Part shown: positions 13,712-30,883 of the stretch, piece by piece
Position numbering within the stretch: the first letter of the stretch is position 1
Layout of the letters: every line of letters starts with the position of its first letter
From: an uncultured Ruminiclostridium sp.
Lineage (GTDB): Bacteria; Bacillota; Clostridia; Oscillospirales; Ruminococcaceae
Length of the DNA stretch: 45,583 nt
Direction: 5' to 3'
NCBI GenBank assembly: GCA_947629925.1
Contig: CANRFO010000021.1
Span: 1 to 45,583 of the forward strand
Program-made: the position numbers and the translations under genes
The notes under the pieces: model-generated
Told to the model about the DNA's origin: nothing
Database searches by the model: none
Seen by the model: the letters and a program-made list of their open reading frames with translations, nothing else

Positions 13712-13990
13712 TGATATAAAAATAACCTTCACCTCACAAAGAGATGAAAGTCACACTTCCACGTTACCACTCTTAATTGACACAGCCTCACGGCGTATGC
13801 CCTCTCATGCGTATCCATCAATACGCTCCCCTGTAACGTGAGGACACGTTTCGTTCTACGGGCAAATGCCTTTCGACGAAAAGCTCAAAGGTGATTTAGA
13901 AAGAATTTCAGCCGTTGTCTCGCACCGAACGACAACTCTCTGGAGGCCTACGGACTTTCCGCTCCTTGTCACAGCCTTTTCGATATTACT
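13712..13990 (-). ncRNA. T-box leader, isoleucine (AUC) specifier
   Basis: The T-box core reads AATTAAGAGTGGTAACGTGG (about 13757-13779). It includes the UGGU tRNA-acceptor-pairing bulge, matching an A discriminator base. The Stem I base pairs AAAAGGCT (13973-13980) with AGCTTTT (13879-13885). On the 3' strand just before it is AAATCACC, giving specifier AUC (13893-13895), Ile. The competing terminator CTTTCATCTC-TTTGT-GAGGTGAAGG (13726-13750) is followed by TTATTTTT. It controls cimA-leuCD(B) by uncharged tRNA-Ile. Confidence 0.85.
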
Positions 13991-13995
13991 CAGTT

Positions 13996-14024
13996 ATGAT
14001 AGCACAAAATTTTTCCTTTGTCAA
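13996..14024 (-). promoter_or_regulatory. promoter of the T-box/cimA operon
   Basis: TTGACA (14019-14024), 17-nt spacer, TATCAT (13996-14001). The predicted start (about 13989) is just upstream of T-box Stem I. Confidence 0.85.
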
Positions 14025-14063: not shown

Positions 14064-14092
14064 TTGACATAATTTTACCGAAGTGGTAAAAT
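14064..14092 (+). promoter_or_regulatory. promoter of the type I toxin mRNA, overlapped by a palindrome
   Basis: TTGACA (14064-14069), 17-nt spacer, TAAAAT (14087-14092). A perfect 10-bp inverted repeat TAATTTTACC-GAAGT-GGTAAAATTA (14070-14094) fills the spacer and covers the -10, a likely operator. Confidence 0.75.
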
Positions 14093-14141
14093 TACCTTGT
14101 CGGCATGTCCATATCTCCGACAGGAGGAGGTGAAAACTGCC

Positions 14142-14237
14142 GTGAGTTACATACTTTCTTTTTTATTGCCTGTCGCAGCACGCATAACAGCTTTTTTTGT
14201 GTGCAAGTGGCTTGACAGGCATAATGCCGACAAGTAA
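14142..14237 (+). CDS. type I toxin-like small membrane peptide (Fst/par-like)
   Basis: 31 aa, GTG start. The sequence is one hydrophobic helix followed by a charged tail: MSYILSFLLPVAARITAFFV, then CKWLDRHNADK. The size, single membrane span and KWLDR-type polar tail are those of Fst/Ldr-like type I toxins. A very strong AGGAGGAGGTGA lies upstream. A 5' hairpin (TGTCGG ... CCGACA, 14099-14122) abuts the ribosome-binding site. An antisense RNA promoter lies downstream on the opposite strand, with two direct repeats shared between the transcripts. Expected action is membrane insertion and depolarisation. Homology to Fst is by architecture, not by close sequence identity. Confidence 0.75.
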   Translation: MSYILSFLLPVAARITAFFVCKWLDRHNADK

Positions 14238-14242
14238 AGCCT

Positions 14243-14322
14243 GAAAAGAATACCCCCGAAGTAGCCGCTTCGGGGGTATTCGTTTTTAGGTGAAAACCTA
14301 AAATTACATACTTTCTTTTGTT
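14243..14322 (-). ncRNA. candidate antitoxin RNA of the type I module
   Basis: A perfect consensus promoter (TTGACA 14352-14357, 17 nt, TATAAT 14329-14334) fires leftward. The roughly 80-nt RNA begins with a segment complementary to TTACATACTTTCTTTT (toxin codons 2-8, 14147-14162). It then folds a hairpin (14284-14303) whose loop region is complementary to AGGTGAAAAC at the toxin ribosome-binding site (14129-14138), and ends at the shared terminator. This reproduces the convergent RNA I/RNA II layout of par loci. Confidence 0.75.
14248..14281. terminator. shared bidirectional terminator of the toxin/antitoxin RNAs
   Basis: 14-bp perfect stem GAATACCCCCGAAG / CTTCGGGGGTATTC with a 6-nt loop. 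GTTTTT follows on the plus strand and TTTTC on the minus strand. Confidence 0.9.
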
Positions 14323-14385
14323 GAGATGATTATAACACAATGTTAACGTTTTGTCAACAAATTTTATAAAATCTTTTTTCGCCGC

Positions 14386-15567
14386 TTATTCCCCCAGCGC
14401 TTTCAGCAGCTCCTCCGCCTTATCCCTTTGCTCCCACTTTACGCCAAGCTCCTCACGTCCCATATGACCGTAAGCGGAAAGGGCGGCGTACTGGGGCTTT
14501 CTAAGTTCAAGCGCCTCGATTATAGCGGCGGGGCGCAGATCGAACACCTTTTTCACCGCCTCTTCTATTTTTTCGGCGGGATACTTTCCCGTGCCGAAGG
14601 TATCAATAGTCAGCGCAACTGAAACAGGCTTCGCCACGCCGATAGCGTAGGCGAGCTGCACCTCGCAGCGCTTTGCAAGACCTGCGGCAACGATATTTTT
14701 TGCAACATATCTTGCGGCGTAAGCGGCGGAGCGGTCAACTTTTGTGGGATCCTTCCCCGAAAAGGCGCCGCCGCCGTGACGGGCATAGCCGCCGTAGGTG
14801 TCAACGATTATCTTCCTGCCTGTAAGACCGCTGTCCCCCTGAGGTCCGCCGATAACAAAGCGGCCTGTGGGATTTATGAAAATGTTTGTGTTCCCGTCCA
14901 GCAGACCTGCGGGAATAACAGGCTTTATCACCTTTTCGATAACGTCCGCTCTTATCTGTTCAAGCTGAGCGCTTTCCTTGTGCTGGGTGGAGATAACTAC
15001 CGTGTCTATACGAACAGGCTTGTCGTCCTCGTATTCCACTGTCACCTGGGATTTTCCGTCGGGGAGCAGGTAGGGTATCTCCCCGCTTTTTCTGCAATCC
15101 GCCAGCCTTTTCGCCAGCTTGTGAGCAAGGGAAATAGGCAAAGGCATAAGCTCAGGCGTTTCATCGCAGGCGTAGCCGAACATCATACCCTGATCCCCCG
15201 CGCCGATATCCAGCTTGTTCTCCTCTCTCCCCTCAAGGGCGTTGTCAACGCCCATAGCTATGTCGGGGGATTGCTCGTCTATTGAGGTGATAACTGCGCA
15301 GGTGTTGCAGTCGAAGCCGTAGGTGGCGTTGTCATAGCCTATCTCCCTGACGGCGTTCCTCACTATCTTGGGGATATCCACGTATCCCTTTGTGGTTATC
15401 TCTCCCATTACCAGTACCATTCCCGTGGTGGTGCAGGTCTCGCAGGCGACGCGGCTCATAGGGTCCTGCTCCAGCAGGGCGTCAAGTATGCTGTCGCTTA
15501 TCCTGTCGCAAATTTTATCGGGATGTCCCTCCGTAACGCTTTCGGAGGTAAAAAGACGCTTTGACAT
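14386..15567 (-). CDS. metK: S-adenosylmethionine synthetase
   Basis: 393 aa, the normal length. It makes SAM from methionine and ATP. Motifs are [19 protein letters not shown] at the N-terminus (ATP-binding His), the [15 protein letters not shown] loop, the phosphate loop [19 protein letters not shown], and a C-terminal [11 protein letters not shown] block. AAAGGAAAA precedes the ATG. It sits directly behind a SAM-I riboswitch with its own terminator and promoter, so the product represses its own synthesis. It is monocistronic; the toxin-antitoxin locus lies beyond its stop. Confidence 0.97.
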
Positions 15568-15601: not shown

Positions 15602-15742
15602 AAAGCCCCCTCAGGGGGCTTGAATTTTTAACGCCCCTCATCTTCCGCCTTTCGGCGCAGGAAGTAGCACCATTTCCGCATTTTTGCGGAGGGTTGCTGC
15701 AGCGTCATGGGGCCTGTCCCTCGGCTGCTCTTGATAAGGTAA
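15602..15742 (-). ncRNA. SAM-I (S-box) riboswitch and terminator
   Basis: Minus-strand leader of metK with the S-box core: CTTATCAAGAGCAGC, GGAGGGAC-like GAGGGACAGGCCC, ATGACGCTGCAGCAACC, GGTGCTAC-TTCCTGC, and the closing GATGAGGGG. The expression-platform terminator AAGCCCCC-TGA-GGGGGCTT (15602-15621) is followed by TTTATTTT. Confidence 0.95.
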
Positions 15743-21820: not shown

Positions 21821-23044
21821 TCAATCAATTTTACCTACAAAACGGTAAAATATTTCAATTTCCTGATTTCTGGTTCCGTCAGGTTCCTTGACAGCTTCGT
21901 GGATAACGATTTTATCGATCAGCGTGTTGAGCAGCTCGGCTGTAAGTTCTGCGGGATCGGTGTACTGCCTGATGAGCATGATCCACTTTTCTGCGTCAGC
22001 TTTCGTCTGCTTTTCAGCCGCAAGATCAGCTTTGAGCCTGTCAATCTTCTCAATCAGCTCCTGCTGCTCGGTCTGATATTTCTTAGAAAGCATTGTGAAA
22101 TTAAACTCGGCGATACGCCCACTTGACCAATCCTCATAAAGCTTTGTAAACAGCTTGTCTGCTTCCGCTTTGCGCTTCTCGGCTCTGGCAAGCTCGGAAG
22201 CCTGCTTTTTTGCCGCGTTGTCACGCTCGGAATTTCCGCTTTTCAGCAGCTTCCGGAGCAGCTTTTCCTCGCTGATCTCCGCTTGCTTCGACCAGTATTG
22301 AACCCTTGCAAGAACATAAGCATAAAGAGTGTCGTAGCGGACGTAATGAGCAGTGCAGCGACCGCCGTTTTTGCCGAGCTGACGGTAATTTGTACAGTTA
22401 AAATAACTGAATGCCGTTTTATTCGATTTGTTTGTTCCGAAACTCATCGACCAACCGCAGTCCGCGCACTTTAAAAGTCCTGCGAAAATCTGAGTATCAG
22501 CAGCGTTTTTCATCTGCCTGCGCCGTTCAGCGATCTGCCCCTGCACCTGTTCAAAAACATCACGGCTGATTATCGCCTCATGTGTATTCTCTACCCTGAA
22601 CCACTCCTCCTGCGGCTTGCGTATCCGCTTCTTGTTCTTGTAGGAGATATTGGTCTGCTTGCCGTGGACGCTGTTGCCGATGTAGGTTTCATCCTTGAGA
22701 ATTGATCTGACCTGCGCTATCGTCCACGCACAGGCTTTTTCCTCCGATTTCCCCTCATAAATGTGGGCGAACGTTCCATACCGTTTGAAGTTCAGCCAAT
22801 CGGGAGTGGGGACTTTTTCAGCAGTCAGGATTTTTGTGATTTTAGCTGCTCCCGCGCCGTGTACGGCAAGGTCGAAAATCCGTTCAACGATCCATTTTGT
22901 TTCATCATCAACGGCAAGCGAATTTTTGATTTCAGGGTGACGGATATAGCCGAGCGGAGCGTAAGCAAAGGTCCTTTCTCCCGCCGCAAATTTGGCGTGA
23001 AGAGCAATTTTGACTTTCCTGCCGGTATCCTTGGCCAGCCATTC
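21821..23044 (-). pseudogene. 3' part of the outer element's large serine recombinase
   Basis: About 407 codons. It covers the post-catalytic helix onward, NEWLAKDTGRKVKIALHAKF, then the recombinase domain (APLGYIRHPE ... ILKDETYIGN), the zinc-ribbon domain (LLKCADCGWSMSF ... RCTAHYVRYDTL) and a long C-terminal coiled coil. The catalytic resolvase domain is missing here and is encoded at 30477-30883. The upstream in-frame ATG within the inner element's terminal repeat is not the real start. Rejoined at GA, the two parts give a 542-aa protein. The gene is disrupted in its current state. Confidence 0.9.
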
Positions 23045-23075
23045 GTTAGTCAACCTTGCATAAAGCATGACGGGT

Positions 23076-24710
23076 TTACAGTTCCACAAAGCCTACGAAA
23101 TTGTAGTAGATATTTATGTCGCGCTCGATGTGCCCGTCAACCTCGCGTTTTTCGCCGATTTCAATCTTTTGAATCAACCTCACAAGCGTCGCACGGTCAA
23201 GCTCCTCAAGTTGAGCATAATCTTGAATCATATCGAGCCAGTCATCTACTGATTTTTCACTCTCTTGACTTGCTGCAAGTTTTGCCGAAAGCTCCTTTTT
23301 ATGCTCCAACTTTTCAGCACGTTCAGCTTCATACTTGTTAAGCAAGTTAATACAAACGCCCTCGGGTATGCGACCCATAACTTTGTCCTCATATGCGGCT
23401 TGAATCAGCTTTTCAAGCTCGGCAAGGCGTTTGTCAATCGCTGTCAACTCGGTTTTCAGCAAACTCATTTTTTCCTCATTCGAGGTCTTTTTCATGTTGA
23501 GAATCCGCTCTTTCAATGCTTCGCGATTTCTTTGCGCGAGGATAGCCTTGCTCCGAATATCTGTCAGCACTACGGCAATGAGTGCTTTCTGATTTATGTA
23601 GTGCGTTGAACAAGCGTCTTTTCCGCCGATAGCGTACCTGTTGCAGACATACGATTTGAATTCGGGCTCTTTTCCCGACATCGTTTTGCGATAATCTCGC
23701 ATGTATCGCAGCGACGAGCCGCAGTCCATGCATCTCAAAATCCCGCCAAACAAGGCGATCATTCCGCTCTTGCCTGTCCTGCTTCGCGAAGGGTGATCGT
23801 CCATACGCTGAACTGCGTCCCAGATTTCCTGTGAGATGATCGGCTCGTGGGTGTTCTCAACCTTGATCCACTCGTCTTTGGGCTTGTCCACCTGCTTATG
23901 ATTTTTGTAGGACACCGTCCCCGTTTTATTCTGAACCGTATGACCGATATAGACCTCGTTGCGGAGAATTGTCTTTACGGTAACATCGTTCCAATACGGA
24001 GTTTCATTTCGAGGATTTTCTCTGCCCTCCGCCATATAGTAGAATGTTCTCGGTGCAGGAACGCCCTCAGCGTTAAGCTGCACCGCAATTTTTCGGAAAC
24101 CGTTTCCTTGCAGGCGCATATCGAAAATATGTTTTACTACGGGAGACGTTATCGGGTCTATCTCCAAAATGTGCTTATCGGCTGAGCTTTTTCGGTAGCC
24201 GAGAGGCGCATAACAGCCTACATACTTGCCAGACTTAAACGTGGATTGCTTAACCGCCTTGATTTTGTTGCTTGTATCCCGCGCATAAAGGTCGTTCATT
24301 ACATTTTTCATTATGACAAGCATTTCGTTGTTTTTTTGCTGAGTGTCCACTCCGTCATTAAGAGCGATAAACCTACAGCCGAGAGACGGAAAGACAAAAT
24401 CCGTGTATCTGCCTGCCTCGATATAATCTCTGCCAAGGCGGCTTAGATCCTTGCAAAGGACAAGGTTGATCTTCTTATCCGTTGCGTCCTGAACAAGACG
24501 GTTAAATTCGGGGCGGTCAAATGTTGTGCCTGAAACTCCGTCGTCACAATAGAAGCCGTAAATGTTCCAACCCTGCTCTCGGGCGTAGCGGCTGAGTAAT
24601 TCCTTTTGATTCTCGATTGAAACCGACTCACCGATTCTTTCGTCATCTCGGCTGAGCCGAGCGTAGATCCCTACATTGTATTTTTCCTGATTATTTATCT
24701 GCATAGCCAT
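23076..24710 (-). CDS. large serine recombinase (TnpX-like), inner element
   Basis: 544 aa, complete. The N-terminal resolvase catalytic domain has GIYARLSRDDERIGESVSIE with nucleophile Ser20, LCKDLSRLGRDYIEAG and YARDTSNKIKAVKQ. Then come the recombinase domain (APLGYRKSS ... ILRNEVYIGHTVQNK), a zinc ribbon (ILRCMDCGSSLRY ... CSTHYINQ) and a C-terminal coiled coil. It should catalyse excision and integration of the inner element at a GA dinucleotide. AGGAGG lies 7 nt before ATG 24710. It is 31 bp from the element's left end, and it is related to, but distinct from, the split recombinase it interrupts. Confidence 0.95.
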   Translation of the reverse strand: MAMQINNQEKYNVGIYARLSRDDERIGESVSIENQKELLSRYAREQGWNIYGFYCDDGVSGTTFDRPEFNRLVQDATDKKINLVLCKDLSRLGRDYIEAGRYTDFVFPSLGCRFIALNDGVDTQQKNNEMLVIMKNVMNDLYARDTSNKIKAVKQSTFKSGKYVGCYAPLGYRKSSADKHILEIDPITSPVVKHIFDMRLQGNGFRKIAVQLNAEGVPAPRTFYYMAEGRENPRNETPYWNDVTVKTILRNEVYIGHTVQNKTGTVSYKNHKQVDKPKDEWIKVENTHEPIISQEIWDAVQRMDDHPSRSRTGKSGMIALFGGILRCMDCGSSLRYMRDYRKTMSGKEPEFKSYVCNRYAIGGKDACSTHYINQKALIAVVLTDIRSKAILAQRNREALKERILNMKKTSNEEKMSLLKTELTAIDKRLAELEKLIQAAYEDKVMGRIPEGVCINLLNKYEAERAEKLEHKKELSAKLAASQESEKSVDDWLDMIQDYAQLEELDRATLVRLIQKIEIGEKREVDGHIERDINIYYNFVGFVEL

Positions 24711-30130: not shown

Positions 30131-30476
30131 TCTCCCGACCTCCCTTCAATTTGTTTCGACACAATTATAACATTTTGTTGAAAAATGCCAACGAATCTCA
30201 AATATATTGCGTTGAAAAGTGTTTTTTGCACGAGCTTCCGCCGTTCAAAACCTCGGCGCGGGTTTGAAACCGATACTTAAAGCGATGAGGGTGTGGAGAG
30301 ATGTATAAGAAAGAGAAAGAGTAAACGAATCGGGGCTTTGCAAGAAAGTCCCGATTTTTTGAATATTGGTGATTAAAATAACCCGCCCAAACCCGCATAA
30401 TGCAGAAAAGGGCGGTTTTTGGATTTCTGATCACTCCGCACTGCTTATGTTTTTTGTCATGCTTTATGGGGAGTTG
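30131..30476. other. right-end segment of the inner element, no gene
   Basis: AT-rich DNA between the sigma pseudogene and the inner element's right terminal repeat (GTCATGCTTTATG, about 30456-30468). Short frames occur, but none with a ribosome-binding site or recognisable product. Confidence 0.6.
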
Positions 30477-30883
30477 TCATTGAACAAATTTTTAAAAGGA
30501 ACGAAATCGCTTAAACCTTTCTCGGTATCCTCATTTTCCGCCACGGCGATGTAGCGGATCTGCTTCTCAGGGAACATAAATTCCAGATAATAATCCATCA
30601 TAACGTGTTCACGACCGAAGCGGGAAAGATCTTTGGTAATTATACAGTTTATCTTTCCTGCCTCAACATCTTCCATCATTCGCCGAAAAGCGGGCCGTTC
30701 AAAGTTCGTTCCGCTCCAGCCGTCGTCGACGTATTCGTCATAAACGACCAGATCATTATCAGCAACGTATTTGCGCAATAACACTCTTTGCGTTTCGATC
30801 GAAACGCTGTCGCCGAAATTTTCGTCATCTCTTGATAGACGCATATATAACGCAGTTGAATATTTTGCATTGCCGGGTGTCAT
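30477..30883 (-). pseudogene. 5' part (catalytic domain) of the outer element's serine recombinase
   Basis: About 135 codons of resolvase catalytic domain: ALYMRLSRDDENFGDSVSIE with nucleophile Ser17, YVDDGWSGTNFERPAFRRM, CIITKDLSRFGREHVMMDYY, and the end at FVPFKNLFN. The frame then runs four residues into the inner element's terminal repeat and stops. The rest of the protein lies at 21821-23044. AGGAGG precedes ATG 30883. The interruption falls exactly at the codon pair FN|EW, the helix joining the catalytic and recombinase domains. Confidence 0.9.

What the first reader, a model, noticed from the sequence alone, without database searches (positions are those of the whole stretch)
14064..14357. 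Compact par-like type I toxin-antitoxin module next to metK
A 31-aa single-helix peptide (14142-14237) is driven by a consensus promoter (14064-14092). An antisense-side consensus promoter (14329-14357) fires toward it, and both transcripts end at one bidirectional terminator (14248-14281). Two direct repeats are shared. AGGTGAAAAC covers the toxin ribosome-binding site (14129-14138) and recurs at 14288-14297. TTACATACTTTCTTTT lies just after the start codon (14147-14162) and recurs at 14304-14319. The antitoxin RNA would therefore be complementary, in trans, to both sides of the toxin start. This is the layout of the enterococcal par/Fst locus, here in a chromosome that looks like Oscillospiraceae and with a peptide of little obvious sequence identity to Fst.
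Basis: partly seen in the sequence, partly recalled or inferred. Interest (0 to 1): 0.9.

Follow-up and report, generated by a model that had tools for sequence, protein, structure and literature searches.

The report
Par/Fst-type toxin–antitoxin beside metK
A 300-base stretch next to a bacterial housekeeping gene looks like a complete 'par' toxin–antitoxin unit, in which a small RNA would keep a tiny membrane-peptide gene silent, and it has many relatives in gut Clostridia and other bacteria that standard annotation libraries mostly miss.

Summary
The 31-aa GTG-start peptide (14142-14237), two convergent consensus promoters, a shared terminator and two direct repeats are present. In three sister species the elements vary at 5 of 131 sites, the rest at 29 of 215. 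Relatives found by a peptide motif, not by layout, gave 106 non-redundant loci; 77 show the full layout, against 5 of 247 control small ORFs. Repeat and helix sequences differ between loci but match within them, as RNA pairing predicts.

It works like par: antisense RNA II blocks translation of a membrane peptide. The peptide has the Fst/Ldr signature tryptophan, lacks the PXXXG glycine and hits no Pfam or NCBIfam model, although a relative with the same layout passes NCBI's Fst cut-off.

The metK position is shared by 3 of 29 metK loci with a full flank, so it is local. The family is patchy (20 of 343 class genomes). No RNA or toxicity was measured. Verdict: new member of a known kind; the little-annotated clostridial branch is the interesting part.

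The parts
14064..14092 (+). RNA I (toxin mRNA) promoter, TTGACA-17-TAAAAT, TG-extended
   Evidence: hexamers invariant in three species
14099..14286 (+). RNA I, predicted toxin mRNA (ends inferred from promoter and terminator)
   Evidence: inference
14096..14106 (+). 5' arm of the upstream helix (5'-UH)
   Evidence: I12, 11 nt 100%; in the predicted fold 14099-14106 pair with 14224-14231
14123..14130 (+). Shine-Dalgarno sequence, predicted paired (mean unpaired probability 0.09)
14128..14137 (+). DRa copy over the toxin ribosome-binding site
   Evidence: D13
14142..14237 (+). 31-aa toxin-like peptide ORF, GTG start, one hydrophobic stretch, Trp23, charged tail
14147..14162 (+). DRb copy just after the start codon
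   Evidence: D1
14224..14234 (+). 3' arm of the upstream helix, within the codons of the peptide's C-terminus
14248..14281 (.). shared bidirectional terminator
14288..14297 (-). DRa copy in RNA II (antisense to the SD region)
   Evidence: D13
14304..14319 (-). DRb copy at the 5' end of RNA II (antisense to codons 2-7)
   Evidence: D1
14243..14322 (-). RNA II, predicted antitoxin RNA of about 80 nt
   Evidence: inference
14329..14357 (-). RNA II promoter, TTGACA-17-TATAAT, 12 of 12
   Evidence: hexamers invariant in three species

Best explanation
This is a chromosomal par-type (RNA I/RNA II) type I toxin–antitoxin module. RNA I starts near 14099 and encodes a 31-aa membrane peptide. Its 5' end is tied to the end of the ORF by a helix and its ribosome site is folded shut, so free mRNA is poorly translated. 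RNA II starts near 14322 on the other strand and stops at the same terminator. It is complementary to RNA I through the terminator and, in trans, through the two repeats on either side of the start codon; binding there blocks ribosome entry. If RNA II is lost or falls behind, the peptide is made and harms the membrane or the cell. Shown: the sequence elements, their conservation in three species, and their within-locus co-variation across the family. Inferred: the transcripts, the order of pairing (terminator loop first, then repeats, by analogy with pAD1), toxicity, and the trigger. The likely origin, also inferred, is a plasmid or phage addiction module retained on the chromosome.
For: Elements in the window. 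Conservation in three sister species. Family of 106 non-redundant loci chosen without using the layout: repeat score at least 12 in 70 of 106 cognate pairs, 9 of 2650 mismatched, 1 of 1060 shuffled; antitoxin-side promoter at least 10 of 12 in 71 of 106 against 42 of 1060 shuffled. Full layout in 77 of 106 against 5 of 247 other small ORFs with SD in the same loci, and in 18 of 29 loci brought in by the window peptide itself, window included. Upstream helix: cognate mean 7.00 against 5.50, sd 0.10, in 2000 re-pairings, none as high; 60 different helices among the 62 loci scoring at least 7. SD less accessible than with shuffled flanks, 0.276 (n 106) against 0.380 (n 318), p 1.3e-6. Start-region duplex energy mean -38.2 cognate against -21.7 mismatched. 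Fst/Ldr signature Trp in 26 of 28 members found with the window peptide (A1) and 78 of 80 of A2, a set mostly picked with a motif that contains that Trp. A relative with the same features scores 31.1 bits against NCBI's Fst model, cut-off 26. Plasmid relatives: 6 of 9 fetched loci pass the layout thresholds; one further, annotated as Fst, passes repeats and promoter but not the hairpin threshold.
Against: No expression or toxicity data. The window peptide itself hits no Pfam or NCBIfam model up to E 10. The glycine of PXXXG, essential in Fst of pAD1 according to PMC7472228, is Arg14 here. No YUNR U-turn in the terminator loop. The minus-strand U-tract of the terminator is only four bases. A simple test for a local SD hairpin was only weakly above shuffled (score at least 10 in 21 of 106 against 108 of 1060). 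29 of 106 family loci and 11 of 29 loci found with the window peptide (two of the 29 have a cut flank) miss at least one layout threshold; three of the latter (L051, L055, L065) show no sign of an antitoxin-side promoter or repeats. The five variable toxin sites among the three sister species lie in four codons, each with a changed amino acid and no silent change, too few to show selection on the protein.
Confidence: 0.88

Rival explanations
1. A non-toxic or inactivated descendant: the layout is intact but the peptide has lost its activity, and RNA II is retained as an anti-addiction RNA or by chance.
For: The residue at the essential PXXXG glycine position is Arg; the module is single-copy and lies beside metK in only 3 of 29 metK loci with a full 3' flank. 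Toxin-less antitoxin units exist in related genomes, so decay happens.
Against: Promoters, SD, start, repeats, helix and terminator are intact and vary less than their surroundings in three species. Most family members lack that glycine too (G in 29 of 80), and A2 was mostly chosen for repeats and promoter.
Confidence: 0.12
2. A regulatory RNA of the neighbours: RNA II or the small ORF controls metK or the divergent T-box leu operon rather than being a toxin–antitoxin pair.
For: No terminator was found between metK and the module; the T-box promoter (14024-13996) is divergent from the RNA I promoter.
Against: The toxin profile finds nothing in the metK 3' flank of 26 of 29 metK loci of the genus, and relatives sit in many other records, plasmids and viral contigs. 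Pairing partners lie inside the module.
Confidence: 0.04
3. A convergent type I pair of the txpA/RatA or C. difficile kind, in which 3' overlap leads to RNase III decay of the toxin mRNA instead of a translation block through repeats.
For: Convergent transcripts that overlap at the terminator; 49 of 80 family peptides weakly match NCBI's C. difficile type I toxin model (best 2.7e-4).
Against: RNA II is not predicted to reach the ORF (stop ends at 14237, RNA II end near 14243), whereas the two repeats placing RNA II over the start site match within loci far above chance. No match reached that model's cut-off in 60 genomes searched.
Confidence: 0.08

Closest known systems
par of Enterococcus plasmid pAD1 (RNA I encoding Fst, RNA II)
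   Same: Convergent promoters, shared bidirectional terminator, DRa and DRb at the translation start, a GUG start, 5' upstream helix, masked SD, about 30-aa single-helix peptide with charged tail (features from PMC7472228).
   Different: Toxin sequence; no YUNR loop; Arg instead of the PXXXG glycine; on a chromosomal contig, no plasmid function known.
Chromosomal Fst systems (parEF0409, Fst-Sm of S. mutans)
   Same: Chromosomal location and par layout, as described in PMC7472228 (sections read); PMC3543317 seen only as a search listing with the start of its abstract.
   Different: Neighbours are metK and a T-box leu operon, not the mannitol-type transport genes that flank parEF0409; the host looks clostridial.
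NCBIfam NF033608 type_I_tox_Fst and Pfam PF13955/PF13940 (Fst, Ldr)
   Same: 7 of 80 family members match NF033608 at E up to 1 (best 1.5e-7); the best, from Candidatus Stoquefichus, exceeds the cut-off (31.1 against 26) and has repeats, antitoxin-side promoter and terminator.
   Different: The window peptide and the other 73 of 80 do not match NF033608; Ldr (PF13940) matches are weak (9 of 80, best 0.046); PF13955 had no match over its cut-off in 60 relatives.
C. difficile type I systems (e.g. CD2517.1-RCd8; NF047374)
   Same: Convergent overlapping genes, small membrane peptide, multiple copies, mostly cognate-specific antitoxins (PMC6563280, abstract and passages).
   Different: Peptides there are mostly 34-53 aa; the words 'direct repeat' do not occur in that review; the NF047374 cut-off of 60 bits is not approached.

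Membership tests
par (pAD1-type RNA I/RNA II) | Convergent promoters flanking the locus | tested here: met
   (11 and 12 of 12); family: antitoxin-side promoter at least 9 of 12 in 99 of 106, against 239 of 1060 shuffles. Sequence only; no start-site mapping.
par (pAD1-type RNA I/RNA II) | Shared bidirectional intrinsic terminator | tested here: met
   15-pair stem 14248-14281, T5 and T4 tails, z -8.3 and -6.2. Termination itself not measured; the minus-strand tail is short.
par (pAD1-type RNA I/RNA II) | Direct repeats DRa and DRb that let RNA II cover the SD and start region | tested here: met
par (pAD1-type RNA I/RNA II) | 5' upstream helix closing the mRNA 5' end | tested here: met
   family co-variation.
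par (pAD1-type RNA I/RNA II) | Intramolecular structure hiding the SD (5'-SL) | tested here: met
   Predicted in the window (unpaired 0.09; 4.5% of 200 shuffles as low) and family-wide lower accessibility. A search for a purely local hairpin was weak, so its exact form is unsettled.
par (pAD1-type RNA I/RNA II) | YUNR U-turn in the terminator loop of RNA I | tested here: not met
   Loop UAGCCG by direct reading. PMC7472228 says not all homologues have it, so it is not required.
Fst/Ldr toxin superfamily | Conserved Trp between a hydrophobic helix and a charged C-terminus | tested here: met
   Trp23 lies between a hydrophobic stretch (Kyte-Doolittle 1.9 over residues 3-21) and the tail LDRHNADK; Trp in 26 of 28 (A1) and 78 of 80 (A2, mostly picked with a motif containing it) members.
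Fst/Ldr toxin superfamily | P/D/S/T-XXX-G motif in the helix (majority of members) | tested here: not met
   Window has P10 but R14. In the family 27 of 80 (A2) and 5 of 28 (A1) fit.
Fst/Ldr toxin superfamily | Match to a curated model (PF13955, PF13940, NF033608) | tested here: not met
   Window peptide: none up to E 10. Indirect link through a relative above the NF033608 cut-off.
Type I toxin–antitoxin system | Peptide is toxic and the RNA neutralises it | not testable with these tools
   Needs expression experiments.
C. difficile type I toxins (NF047374) | Score over the curated cut-off of 60 bits | tested here: not met
   Weak partial matches only; of the peptides scanned one by one the best was 24.6 bits. 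No genome match over the cut-off in 60 relatives. The window peptide does not match at all.

The most novel reading that the evidence does not exclude
Fully built par modules form a large, little-annotated branch across Clostridia, Negativicutes and Erysipelotrichia, on chromosomes, plasmids and virus-like contigs. They sometimes stand in tandem arrays whose RNA pairs are largely private to each unit, with orphan antitoxins beside them. In this copy the antitoxin lies inside the 3' end of metK transcripts: no metK terminator is found before the unit, so read-through from a SAM-riboswitch gene would add antitoxin when SAM is low, tying toxin control to methyl metabolism.
Probability: 0.2. Interest if true: 0.75.

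Novelty: new member of a known kind. Interest (0 to 1): 0.5.

Why it matters
[quoted passage not shown] Here the par layout is found around a peptide family in many clostridial records, in plasmids and in viral contigs, and curated models mostly miss it. If it works as inferred, it gives dozens of natural, independently varied RNA pairs in which to read the pairing rules of antitoxin specificity, tandem arrays in which to test cross-talk, and chromosomal copies in which to ask what par does when it is not holding a plasmid.

Tried and rejected
Own-genome paralogues: none found. Profile A2, of which the window peptide is a row, finds only the window copy; the DNA hit at G000:C17:31274 (L003) lies in what by eye is an ABC-transporter reading frame and is taken as chance.

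Weak DNA hits to the RNA II promoter region in same-genus genomes (eight inspected by eye) look like ordinary promoters, not par units.

Phage record search gave two 47%-coverage hits in small virus records; not used.

Solved structures: nothing meaningful.

metK conservation: expected if the module regulated metK; rejected (3 of 29 loci with a full 3' flank; a 30th locus, L382, has only about 95 bases there). A toxin too divergent for the profile would be missed.

Breadth: with profile A2 at E up to 1e-4, only 20 of 343 genomes of the class and 14 of 348 of the phylum match, the own genome counted. The family is widespread but patchy, and a 29-position profile has limited sensitivity.

Literature: searches, seen as capped listings, showed no paper describing par/Fst modules in Oscillospiraceae, Ruminococcus or Lachnospiraceae. 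Four older papers sought by DOI recalled from memory (surveys and a database of type I systems) are not held, so absence from print is not established; PMC7472228 already calls par-like loci ubiquitous in Firmicutes. PMC8309996, PMC10903887 and PMC4147584 were read as passages only.

Rows dropped before counts: 252 motif matches, 119 with an SD start and at most 60 aa, 113 with full flanks, 106 after removing near-duplicates. Alignment A2 took 74 of the 87 peptides that passed repeat and promoter thresholds, plus the window peptide and five others, so counts on A2 lean towards good layouts and towards the motif used to find them. Of 11 regions fetched, the cross-match of units was computed for four.

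Full report
WHAT IS THERE. Between a divergent T-box leu-type operon and metK lies a 300-base unit. Searches confirm a plus-strand promoter (14064-14092), a GTG-started 31-codon ORF with a strong ribosome site (14142-14237), a 15-pair inverted repeat (14248-14281) with T tracts on both sides, and a 12-of-12 minus-strand promoter (14357-14329). An exact 12-nt repeat in such geometry occurs at 5 of 1788 other places in the window.

EXTRA FEATURES. The mRNA 5' end (14096-14106) is perfectly complementary to the last codons of the ORF (14224-14234), and the predicted RNA I fold uses this helix and pairs the SD with the DRb region (SD unpaired 0.09). RNA II is predicted as a single-stranded 5' tail carrying anti-DRb, a small hairpin carrying anti-DRa, and the terminator hairpin. 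Pairing of the start region with the RNA II 5' part is -37.5 kcal/mol, against -11.6 (sd 2.7, minimum -26.3) in 1000 shuffles.

CONSERVATION NEARBY. Two same-genus genomes of 60 searched (own included) carry the unit nearly full-length and at the same place. Named elements vary at 5 of 131 sites, other sites at 29 of 215; both terminator changes fall in the loop. The five variable toxin sites lie in four codons, each with a changed amino acid, so protein-level selection cannot be shown from these three species. The unit is single-copy in its genome. 38 of 40 genus genomes had a metK match; 30 metK loci were held, 29 with a full 3' flank, and 3 of those 29 have the unit there.

FAMILY. The window peptide found relatives in 92 of 396 same-family genomes at E up to 1; many of the weaker hits are likely chance, as they sit in long open frames. 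Of 29 fetched loci with the better hits, window included, 18 pass all three layout thresholds (two of the 29 have a cut flank). Among the 28 peptides aligned, A13, K22, W23 and D25 are nearly invariant. To test the layout without circularity I scanned public collections for a peptide-coding motif and kept every hit with an SD start, a short ORF and full flanks. That gave 106 non-redundant loci. Repeat score at least 12: 70 of 106 cognate, 9 of 2650 mismatched, 1 of 1060 shuffled. Antitoxin-side promoter at least 10 of 12: 71 of 106 against 42 of 1060. Full layout: 77 of 106 (viral contigs 10 of 16, genomes 67 of 90) against 5 of 247 control small ORFs. The window scores 16, 12 of 12 and 23 on the same scales. 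Titles of the motif records are mainly Lachnospiraceae, Oscillospiraceae and other Clostridia, with some Negativicutes and Erysipelotrichia. Breadth is patchy: 20 of 343 class and 14 of 348 phylum genomes match profile A2 at E up to 1e-4.

CO-VARIATION. The upstream helix differs in nearly every locus, yet cognate ends match: mean 7.00 against 5.50 (sd 0.10) under 2000 re-pairings, none reaching it; 60 different helices among 62 loci scoring at least 7. In some loci the 3' arm lies inside the last codons, in others it spans or follows the stop, so the RNA helix may help shape the C-terminal residues (ADK, SDK, DN). SD accessibility is lower than with shuffled flanks (0.276 against 0.380, p 1.3e-6). 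Start-region duplex energies are -38.2 cognate and -21.7 mismatched. These patterns are what pairing between RNA I and RNA II, and within RNA I, requires. Against: a purely local SD hairpin was only weakly enriched, and with wide search windows the helix signal is diluted (mean 7.70 cognate against 6.97 mismatched).

ARRAYS AND ORPHANS. Four of the fetched arrays (L366, L367, L375, L376) hold 3 to 6 units each. In these four the cognate repeat score is the highest in each of the 17 rows; the largest mismatched score is 15, between the first two units of L366. Two toxin-less antitoxin units each stand in the arrays of two genus relatives (L375, L376); none matches a toxin of its own array above a score of 8. 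They may be remnants. One of the four has a terminator too imperfect for the scan.

RELATION TO KNOWN SYSTEMS. The layout features that PMC7472228 gives for par (sections read) are met except the YUNR loop, which that review says is not universal. The toxin carries the Fst/Ldr tryptophan signature but not the PXXXG glycine, and no curated model matches it. Seven of 80 relatives match NCBI's Fst model at E up to 1; the best (1.5e-7, 31.1 bits, cut-off 26) has the par features and aligns with the window peptide at 41% over 22 residues. A Megamonas plasmid gene annotated as Fst has strong repeats and an antitoxin-side promoter but misses the hairpin threshold within the span scanned. So it works like par with high confidence; membership in the Fst superfamily is likely but rests on the signature and on intermediates. 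Matches on plasmids of 3-44 kb from Mediterraneibacter, Waltera, Butyricicoccus, Amedibacterium, Ligilactobacillus, Enterococcus hirae and uncultured bacteria are weak by sequence alone (E 8e-4 to 2), but 6 of 9 such loci, Megamonas counted, pass the layout thresholds. This suggests an addiction-module origin.

HOST.

HOW IT WORKS (inferred steps marked). RNA I is made (inferred), folds with its SD masked (predicted) and waits. RNA II (inferred) meets it at the terminator loop (by analogy with pAD1) and then covers the SD and codons 2-7 through the repeats (supported by within-locus matching), stopping translation (inferred). Loss or shortage of RNA II releases the peptide (inferred), which would act in the membrane (inferred from sequence; Kyte-Doolittle 1.9 over residues 3-21). 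No terminator was found between metK and the unit, so metK read-through could add antitoxin; this is speculative.

VERDICT. Observation confirmed, interpretation supported. The locus is a new member of a known kind. The wider interest is the breadth, variability and poor annotation of this branch outside Bacilli.

Noticed in passing
window 14281-14386 (-): No terminator is found between the metK stop and the RNA II promoter, so the metK transcript may end at the module's terminator and carry the antitoxin in its 3' UTR; metK is preceded by a SAM riboswitch at 15635-15740.
   Followed up: partly
window 13737-14024 (-): T-box leader (RF00230, 95.8 bits) of the leu-type operon, whose promoter-like site (14024-13996) is divergent from the RNA I promoter with about 40 bases between the -35 boxes.
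   Followed up: no
L375 724-835 and 2742-2860; L376 640-749 and about 2030-2136 (oriented as): Toxin-less antitoxin units (terminator plus promoter, no peptide) inside par arrays of two same-genus genomes; possible orphan or anti-addiction RNAs. The last one's hairpin is imperfect and was seen by eye only.
   Followed up: partly
L366 (G979:C23), L367 (G1101:C28), L368 (G1092:C4), L369 (G420:C1): Tandem par-like units, in L366 and L367 about 400-600 bases apart, with their own repeats and 12-of-12 antitoxin-side promoters; L368 and L369 were not cross-matched.
   Followed up: partly
L051, L055, L065: Related peptides beside a tRNA-like stretch without antitoxin-side promoter or repeats; by eye their mRNA leader is complementary to the start region, perhaps a different, self-blocking arrangement.
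   Followed up: no
alignment A2: 49 of 80 family peptides weakly match NCBI's C. difficile type I toxin model NF047374 (best 2.7e-4), hinting that those toxins, described as without homologues, may be distant relatives.
   Followed up: no
L401 and L397: Toxin-profile hits (2.4e-7 and 4e-4) near metK but not in its 3' flank in two other species.
   Followed up: no
window 21821-24710 and 30464-30883: Reading frames resembling large serine recombinases near SpoVA-like genes, suggesting an integrated mobile element in the window (recognised by eye, no family search).
   Followed up: no
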